Below the pieces are notes generated by a model. It was not told where the DNA came from. It saw nothing but the letters and a program-made list of their open reading frames with translations, and did no database searches. Shown in pieces: positions 52,883 through 53,856 of a stretch of DNA of 61,933 nt. A program made the translations under genes and the position numbers. Location of the stretch: contig CAIUIT010000082.1 in the NCBI GenBank assembly GCA_903899375.1, positions 1 to 61,933 of the forward strand, given 5' to 3'. Origin of the DNA: an uncultured Actinomycetes bacterium (GTDB lineage Bacteria; Actinomycetota; Actinomycetes; Nanopelagicales; Nanopelagicaceae). The first letter of the stretch is position 1, and every line of letters starts with the position of its first letter.

Positions 52883-53530
52883 CTAATTTTGCTCCGTAAT
52901 TCCCATTAGCCCAAGCACCTGCAGTAAATTGCCATCATTTATGGAGTGCATCGCTGCAGCTTGAACTTTAGGCTTTGCATTAAATGCGATGCTCAACCCG
53001 GCAATTGCCATCATGCCCAAGTCGTTAGCCCCATCTCCCACAGCCACTGTCTGGGACAAGGGGATCCCAAGCTGCAGGGCGATCTCCTTCAAGAATTCAG
53101 CCTTTCCTAAACTGGTGATCAATGCACCCGTCGTACGCCCCGTAAGAACGCCATCGACACTCTCCAGGTGGTTTGCCCGGAAGTAATCCACCCCTGCAGT
53201 TCTCAAAATTGGATGAATTATATTTTCGAATCCCCCGGAGACCACGGCAACTTTGTGACCAGCGGCGTGAAGTTGATCAACCATCTCTTGTGCCCCACGA
53301 GAAAGGGAGATCTCCCTTCGAACCTGGTCGAAGATCTCTACTGGCAAACCCTTGAGCAGGGCCACCCTTTGCGCAAGCGAGGCGCTGAAATCTACATCCC
53401 CGCGCATCGATCGTTCCGTGATAGCGGCGACTTCCTCTCCCACCCCTGCGTGTGCGGCCAGAAGATCGATCACCTCTTGTTGGATAAAGGTGGAGTCCAT
53501 GTCGAGCACCACCAAACGTTGCCCATTCAT
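52883..53530 (-). CDS. serB: Phosphoserine phosphatase, catalytic domain
   Basis: HAD-superfamily phosphatase of 215 aa for the last step of serine synthesis. D10-M-D12-S-T14 holds the nucleophile and acid, VAVVSGGF is motif 2, LGKAEFL has the motif 3 lysine and GDGANDLGMM is motif 4; FNAKP follows as in SerB. In other actinobacteria SerB carries one or two ACT domains in front of this region. Here an ACT-domain ORF ends in TAA just 9 bases upstream, in the same frame, so the gene is split by a single stop codon. The ATG at 53530 has no close Shine-Dalgarno (AAAGGG is 14 bases away); translation may restart after the ACT stop. Confidence 0.93.
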   Translation of the reverse strand: MNGQRLVVLDMDSTFIQQEVIDLLAAHAGVGEEVAAITERSMRGDVDFSASLAQRVALLKGLPVEIFDQVRREISLSRGAQEMVDQLHAAGHKVAVVSGGFENIIHPILRTAGVDYFRANHLESVDGVLTGRTTGALITSLGKAEFLKEIALQLGIPLSQTVAVGDGANDLGMMAIAGLSIAFNAKPKVQAAAMHSINDGNLLQVLGLMGITEQN

Positions 53531-53539
53531 CGGGAGGCT

Positions 53540-53806
53540 TTAAACCCTTTCCGAGTAATCGATTGCAACGTCAAAACCAGTGCTGGCCCCAAAATCAACG
53601 AGATCAGCTTCAATGGCTTGGACATGGGCGCGATCACATGTAATCAAGAACCCCACGATCAGACGGCCGCGCAGGGCAATCTTCTGGACTTCTAGGATTT
53701 TCAGTGTAAAAGGTTCCAAGACGGCGCGCAGGGACTCTTCGACCCCGGGGACGTCATTTGATGAGAGCAGGATAAGAGCGTCAAACTCATTTTGGAGTGC
53801 AGGCAT
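53540..53806 (-). CDS. ACT-domain protein, severed N-terminal part of SerB
   Basis: A protein of 88 aa from the ATG at 53806 (PALQNEFDALILLSSND...). It fits the ACT-like N-terminal domain of SerB: LILLSSNDVPGVEESLRAVLEP and a C-terminal GFDVAIDYSERV that would run straight into the phosphatase. The TAA stop and the next 9 bases (AGCCTCCCG) are in frame with the serB ATG, so a read-through product would be a normal ACT-SerB. TAATCT ends 7 bases before the ATG, marking a leaderless start; the track's TTG at 53833 lies upstream of that box. It may act as a separate serine-sensing subunit, or the stop may be a recent mutation or sequencing error. Confidence 0.6.
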   Translation of the reverse strand: MPALQNEFDALILLSSNDVPGVEESLRAVLEPFTLKILEVQKIALRGRLIVGFLITCDRAHVQAIEADLVDFGASTGFDVAIDYSERV

Positions 53807-53813
53807 GAGGCGA

Positions 53814-53819
53814 AGATTA
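53814..53819 (-). promoter_or_regulatory. -10 box TAATCT for the ACT-serB unit
   Basis: On the minus strand TAATCT ends 7 bases before the ATG at 53806. Confidence 0.5.
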
Positions 53820-53842
53820 GCCTGTATCACCAAATGAAAGGG

Positions 53843-53848
53843 TATCTT
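53843..53848 (+). promoter_or_regulatory. -10 box TATCTT for the ABC ATPase operon
   Basis: TATCTT ends 8 bases before the GTG at 53857, giving at most a one- or two-base leader. Confidence 0.35.
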
Positions 53849-53856
53849 TCACCATT

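What the first reader, a model, noticed from the sequence alone, without database searches (positions are those of the whole stretch)
52883..53806. Phosphoserine phosphatase split by one in-frame stop between ACT and catalytic domains
Seen: the ACT ORF ends in TAA; after 9 bases in the same frame comes the ATG of the phosphatase. Read through the TAA, the protein would be a normal ACT-SerB. All HAD catalytic motifs are intact and the ACT part is not decayed. Known: ACT domains of SerB bind serine in other actinobacteria. Inference: either the regulatory and catalytic parts are now two polypeptides made by reinitiation, or stop readthrough makes both, or this is a recent nonsense mutation or error.
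Basis: partly seen in the sequence, partly recalled or inferred. Interest (0 to 1): 0.6.

Follow-up and report, generated by a model that had tools for sequence, protein, structure and literature searches.

The report
Serine enzyme split into two genes
In a group of freshwater actinobacteria the last enzyme of serine synthesis, normally one protein carrying its own serine sensor, is encoded as two adjacent genes (a small sensor-like protein and the bare enzyme); this split is real and conserved, has probably arisen more than once, and suggests a two-subunit version of the enzyme.

Summary
It is not an error, a recent nonsense mutation or stop readthrough. Of 32 genomes of the same genus, 18 (window included) have one ACT ORF next to a stand-alone phosphatase ORF and 13 have the ancestral fused protein (383-412 aa, two ACT domains). 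Among the 18 the stop is TAA, TAG or TGA, the second ORF is in frame in only nine, and junctions include ATGA, GTGA, TAATG, TAGTG and stop-ATG abutments, typical of translationally coupled cistrons. Both ORFs are under purifying selection. The family also holds an apparently independent one-ACT split (genus g17), two-ACT | phosphatase splits (ten genomes) and phosphatases with no adjacent ACT. The effector-binding glycine is kept in 16 of 18; ACT2 is gone. Best reading: a fixed gene fission giving a catalytic subunit plus a small ACT regulatory subunit acting in trans, as IlvN does for acetohydroxyacid synthase. Separate polypeptides are strongly supported by sequence; trans regulation is inferred, helped by published restoration of M. 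tuberculosis SerB2 phosphatase-domain activity by added ACT domains.

The parts
53543..53806 (-). stand-alone ACT-domain protein (88 aa), equivalent to ACT1 of mycobacterial SerB; coding part without stop
   Evidence: Pfam ACT_6 in the window and in all 16 aligned members; model with beta-alpha-beta-beta-alpha-beta order, pLDDT 83; best PDB fold matches are M. avium SerB2; start codon at a conserved place
53540..53542 (-). TAA stop of the ACT gene
   Evidence: same column is TAA/TAG/TAG in the three closest relatives
53531..53539 (-). 9-nt intercistronic spacer; a weak Shine-Dalgarno-like GGAAAGGG lies inside the end of the ACT gene
   Evidence: best pairing with an assumed anti-SD tail -4.5 kcal/mol in the 20 nt upstream of the ATG
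52883..53530 (-). stand-alone catalytic phosphoserine phosphatase SerB (HAD-IB, 215 aa), stop included
   Evidence: TIGR00338 241 bits over cut-off 144; about 50% identity to the SerB catalytic domains of the class
53807..53856 (.). 50-bp divergent spacer between the ACT gene and an ABC ATPase gene; presumed promoter region of the two-gene unit
   Evidence: no sigma-70-like match in the simple scan, so the promoter is inferred only

Best explanation
A fixed gene fission of SerB. An ancestral ACT1-ACT2-phosphatase gene lost ACT2 and was cut at the ACT/phosphatase boundary, leaving two overlapping or adjacent cistrons. Ribosomes finishing the ACT gene restart at the phosphatase start codon (translational coupling), so both polypeptides are made together. 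The ACT protein most likely works in trans on the phosphatase as a small regulatory subunit, supporting activity and/or giving L-serine feedback, in the way IlvN/IlvH works on acetohydroxyacid synthase. Shown by sequence: separate, conserved, selected ORFs with coupled-type junctions. Inferred: coupling itself (about 0.85), physical association (about 0.65), serine sensing by the split ACT in this clade (about 0.5).
For: 18 of 32 genus genomes have the split and 13 are fused. Junctions: stop to start +10 to -4 nt, including TAATG, TAGTG, ATGA, GTGA and TAG directly followed by ATG, with a start codon at nearly the same place in every phosphatase. Pairwise dN/dS of the ACT 0.06-0.17 in most unsaturated pairs; the phosphatase is constrained too. 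The split clade is one group in the HAD tree (90/76). The Gly equivalent to the ligand-binding Gly of SerB ACT1 is kept in 16 of 18. ACT model closest to M. avium SerB2, TM 0.82. SerA with its own ACT and SerC are present, so the pathway is complete. Published: in M. tuberculosis SerB2 the phosphatase domain alone is strongly impaired, equimolar ACT domains added in trans restore about 40% of activity, and the Gly mutants lose serine binding (PMC4270767).
Against: No direct evidence that the two proteins meet or that the ACT binds serine. In M. tuberculosis SerB2 serine is thought to act at an ACT1-ACT2 interface (PMC10564941); with ACT2 gone an ACT1 homodimer would have to replace it. Two of the 18 have lost the Gly, as have the g17 split ACTs. 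Some relatives keep a phosphatase with no adjacent ACT detected, so the ACT is dispensable in some lineages. The window's own Shine-Dalgarno pairing is modest.
Confidence: 0.7

Rival explanations
1. Two separate proteins, but the ACT protein has left SerB and now regulates something else (another enzyme, or the divergent ABC transporter), or acts only as a folding or coupling leader.
For: ACT2, which carries part of the known serine site, is gone; the Gly is lost in g17; some lineages have a phosphatase with no adjacent ACT found. The ABC ATPase gene next door is conserved in both fused and split loci.
Against: The ACT gene stays immediately upstream of and tightly coupled to the phosphatase in every split genome examined, in apparently independent fissions. 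The ABC neighbour is equally conserved beside fused genes, so it does not explain the coupling.
Confidence: 0.22
2. Programmed stop readthrough makes some full-length ACT-SerB as well.
For: The window and eight relatives keep both ORFs in one frame.
Against: Nine of 18 have the ORFs in different frames; stops are TAA, TAG or TGA in varied contexts; one genome has TAATAG; residues between stop and start are not conserved.
Confidence: 0.03
3. Recent nonsense mutation, pseudogene or assembly error.
For: Only that the window is from a draft genome.
Against: Same stop column in three separately assembled relatives, the split in 18 genomes, low dN/dS, intact motifs.
Confidence: 0.01
4. The phosphatase is not SerB but another HAD-IB phosphatase, such as a histidinol-phosphatase (it lies beside hisE and hisG).
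For: His genes next door; SerB-like histidinol phosphatases are known (PMC5764234).
Against: TIGR00338 serB 241 bits over cut-off 144, while the SerB-like histidinol-phosphatase models are far below cut-off; a HisN-like protein lies elsewhere in the genome, just below its curated cut-off; only weak other SerB-like matches exist in the genome; the fused orthologues in the same place have SerB architecture.
Confidence: 0.04

Closest known systems
Mycobacterial SerB2 / M. avium SerB (ACT1-ACT2-phosphatase; PDB 3P96, 5JLP)
   Same: Catalytic domain and ACT1 are homologous (E 4e-65 with a read-through query, two matched stretches); key Gly present; ACT fold match TM 0.82
   Different: One 400-aa chain with two ACT domains; here two chains and one ACT
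IlvB-IlvN / IlvI-IlvH acetohydroxyacid synthase
   Same: Works-like analogue: small separately encoded ACT subunit next to the catalytic gene (from general knowledge)
   Different: Unrelated catalytic enzyme; not homologous as a system
ACT-free SerB of Methanocaldococcus jannaschii and Helicobacter pylori (PDB 1F5S, 3M1Y)
   Same: Stand-alone phosphatase of similar length
   Different: No partner ACT gene is part of the described enzyme; here an ACT gene is coupled upstream
Split enzymes such as the three-gene B12-dependent methionine synthase (PMC5764234)
   Same: Domains of one enzyme encoded by separate genes
   Different: Different enzyme, and no regulatory ACT is released there

Membership tests
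Phosphoserine phosphatase SerB (TIGR00338, HAD-IB) | Score above curated equivalog cut-off | tested here: met
   241.1 bits against 144.15
Phosphoserine phosphatase SerB (TIGR00338, HAD-IB) | HAD motifs DxDST, SGG, K, GDGxND | tested here: met
   DMDST, SGGF, GKAEF, GDGAND in the translation, and conserved in the alignment
Phosphoserine phosphatase SerB (TIGR00338, HAD-IB) | Hydrolysis of L-phosphoserine | not testable with these tools
   needs an assay
ACT domain (ACT_6) | Profile match and beta-alpha-beta-beta-alpha-beta fold | tested here: met
   25.2 bits against 23, all 16 aligned members match; secondary structure order and fold match
ACT domain (ACT_6) | Effector-binding Gly between beta1 and alpha1 | tested here: met
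   present in the window and in 16 of 18 split loci
ACT-ACT-SerB single-chain enzyme | Two ACT domains and phosphatase in one chain | tested here: not met
   one ACT, separate ORF
Translationally coupled gene pair | Stop and start overlapping or within a few nt, conserved | tested here: met
   -4 to +10 nt in 18 genomes
Translationally coupled gene pair | Downstream translation depends on upstream translation | not testable with these tools
   needs a reporter or ribosome profiling
Separate ACT regulatory subunit (IlvN-like in function) | Binds and regulates the catalytic subunit | not testable with these tools
   only indirect support from published M. tuberculosis SerB2 domain mixing (PMC4270767)

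The most novel reading that the evidence does not exclude
A natural two-subunit phosphoserine phosphatase: fission has repeatedly turned the serine-sensing ACT part of SerB into a dissociable regulatory subunit in small-genome freshwater actinobacteria, with intermediate stages (two-ACT | phosphatase, one-ACT | phosphatase, phosphatase with no adjacent ACT) still visible in living relatives.
Probability: 0.5. Interest if true: 0.6.

Novelty: new variant of a known kind. Interest (0 to 1): 0.47.

Why it matters
It gives a natural series for how an allosteric enzyme comes apart into catalytic and regulatory subunits, in an enzyme where domain mixing in vitro is already published. Fused, two-ACT split, one-ACT split and ACT-less forms coexist in one bacterial family, so the order of steps and the fate of feedback control can be tested directly. 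It also warns annotators that a small ACT protein next to SerB is a likely functional part and not a truncated gene.

Tried and rejected
Readthrough and frameshift: rejected from stop, context and frame variation. Nonsense mutation or error: rejected from relatives. Single origin of all one-ACT splits: AU p 0.038 against, but g1 plus g17 alone p 0.144, so the HAD tree by itself does not prove independence; the rpoB tree places one g17 genome with a fused g16 genome (97/94) away from g1, and regaining ACT2 is unlikely. A first rpoB tree was invalid because loci on the minus strand were read on the wrong strand; redone. The HisG query was out of frame, so only its HisE, ABC and UppP results are used. 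The structure of the read-through protein (pTM 0.61) was too uncertain between domains to say where the ACT docks. A family scan of another HAD protein gave nothing, perhaps through a wrong frame, and is not used. Paper searches for split SerB or gene fission found none; the library is open-access only.

Full report
Observation. The minus strand carries an 88-aa ACT ORF (53806-53543), TAA at 53542-53540, nine bases, and the ATG at 53530 of a 215-aa phosphatase ending at 52883. The ACT scores 25.2 bits with Pfam ACT_6 (cut-off 23) and the phosphatase 241 bits with TIGR00338 serB (cut-off 144). The finding is exact.

Relatives. The window lies in a 1.38-Mb draft genome. A search of its 32-genome genus followed by ORF analysis gave 18 genomes with a single ACT ORF beside a stand-alone phosphatase ORF, 13 with a fused frame of 383-412 aa (long enough for two ACT domains, as in mycobacterial SerB), and one with no SerB found. 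Named records of close relatives are metagenome-assembled uncultured actinobacteria. The three nearest, 82-83% identical over the whole stretch, have TAA, TAG and TAG at the window's stop column.

Junctions. Over the 18 split loci the distance from the ACT stop to the phosphatase start is +10 to -4 nt. Nine are in frame, nine are not. The set includes ATGA and GTGA overlaps, TAATG, TAGTG, TAG directly followed by ATG, and one TAATAG double stop. A start codon is present at nearly the same place in every phosphatase. This is the pattern of translationally coupled cistrons and it contradicts readthrough, in which stop, context and frame should be kept.

Selection. Pairwise dN/dS of the ACT ORF is 0.06-0.17 in most pairs that are not saturated (0.27 in the closest pair); the phosphatase is constrained to a similar or greater degree where it can be estimated. 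Many silent distances are near saturation, so these are approximate. In 16 of 18 the Gly that in M. tuberculosis SerB2 is needed for serine binding is kept (PMC4270767). The ACT model has the ACT strand order, pLDDT 83, and its best PDB match is M. avium SerB2.

Wider survey. In a sample of 201 family genomes and loci from it, most genera are fused. All 20 genomes of genus g17 with a usable locus have a one-ACT split, as does the single g5 genome. Ten genomes of g15 and g16 have a two-ACT protein (the second ACT inferred from length and position) followed by a separate phosphatase. Five g8 genomes and one g11 genome have a phosphatase with no ACT found upstream. Five g12 genomes have a short fused N-terminus that barely matches or does not match the ACT profile. 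The order-level sample held only this family. In the class-level sample the listed matches outside the family were long frames, except G385 and G468, which are phosphatases with no adjacent ACT, and G306 (299 aa, not examined).

Number of origins. The HAD tree separates the g1 split clade (90/76) from the g17 split clade (96/80) and puts two-ACT splits in three places. The AU test gives p 0.038 against one origin of all one-ACT splits and 0.144 for g1 plus g17. The rpoB tree joins one g17 genome to a fused g16 genome (97/94), away from g1. With the improbability of regaining ACT2, at least two fissions are likely; the exact number is open. The two-ACT splits show that fission can precede loss of ACT2.

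Mechanism. SerA with its own ACT region and SerC are present, so serine synthesis is complete. In published work, the M. tuberculosis SerB2 phosphatase domain alone loses most of its efficiency and equimolar ACT domains in trans restore about 40% (PMC4270767); serine is thought to act at the ACT1-ACT2 interface of the dimer (PMC10564941). The simplest reading is that the split keeps this interaction between two chains, with an ACT homodimer standing in for ACT1-ACT2. That step is inferred. In g17 the Gly is gone, so there the ACT may only support activity.

Novelty. The enzyme and the domain are known; a naturally split SerB with a coupled ACT gene was not found in the papers searched. It is a new variant of a known kind, moderately interesting because the stages coexist.

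Noticed in passing
G092:C1 and G157 (whole genomes, genus g16): Two nearly complete genomes (one a single contig) have no SerB over the cut-off and no PGDH over the cut-off, so they look like serine auxotrophs.
   Followed up: partly
L119, L120, L134, L141, L143 (g8) and L121 (g11): SerB phosphatase with no ACT domain found upstream: apparent loss of the ACT part in other genera of the family.
   Followed up: partly
L123-L127 (g12): Fused SerB of 317-360 aa frame whose N-terminal region hardly matches the ACT profile: a degenerate single ACT or another domain.
   Followed up: partly
window 53603-53635, minus strand, and the aligned ACTs: A DPAHxxAIExD-like motif in the ACT (DRAHVQAIEAD in the window) is kept across fused and split ACTs of the family, even where the ligand Gly is lost, and is absent from M. 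avium SerB; it could mark a contact with the phosphatase or between ACTs.
   Followed up: no
G197:C22:54973-55923: PGDH match stops at profile position 319 of 525 in a 329-aa frame, so the C-terminal ASB/ACT part seems missing in a genome that also lacks a detected SerB.
   Followed up: no
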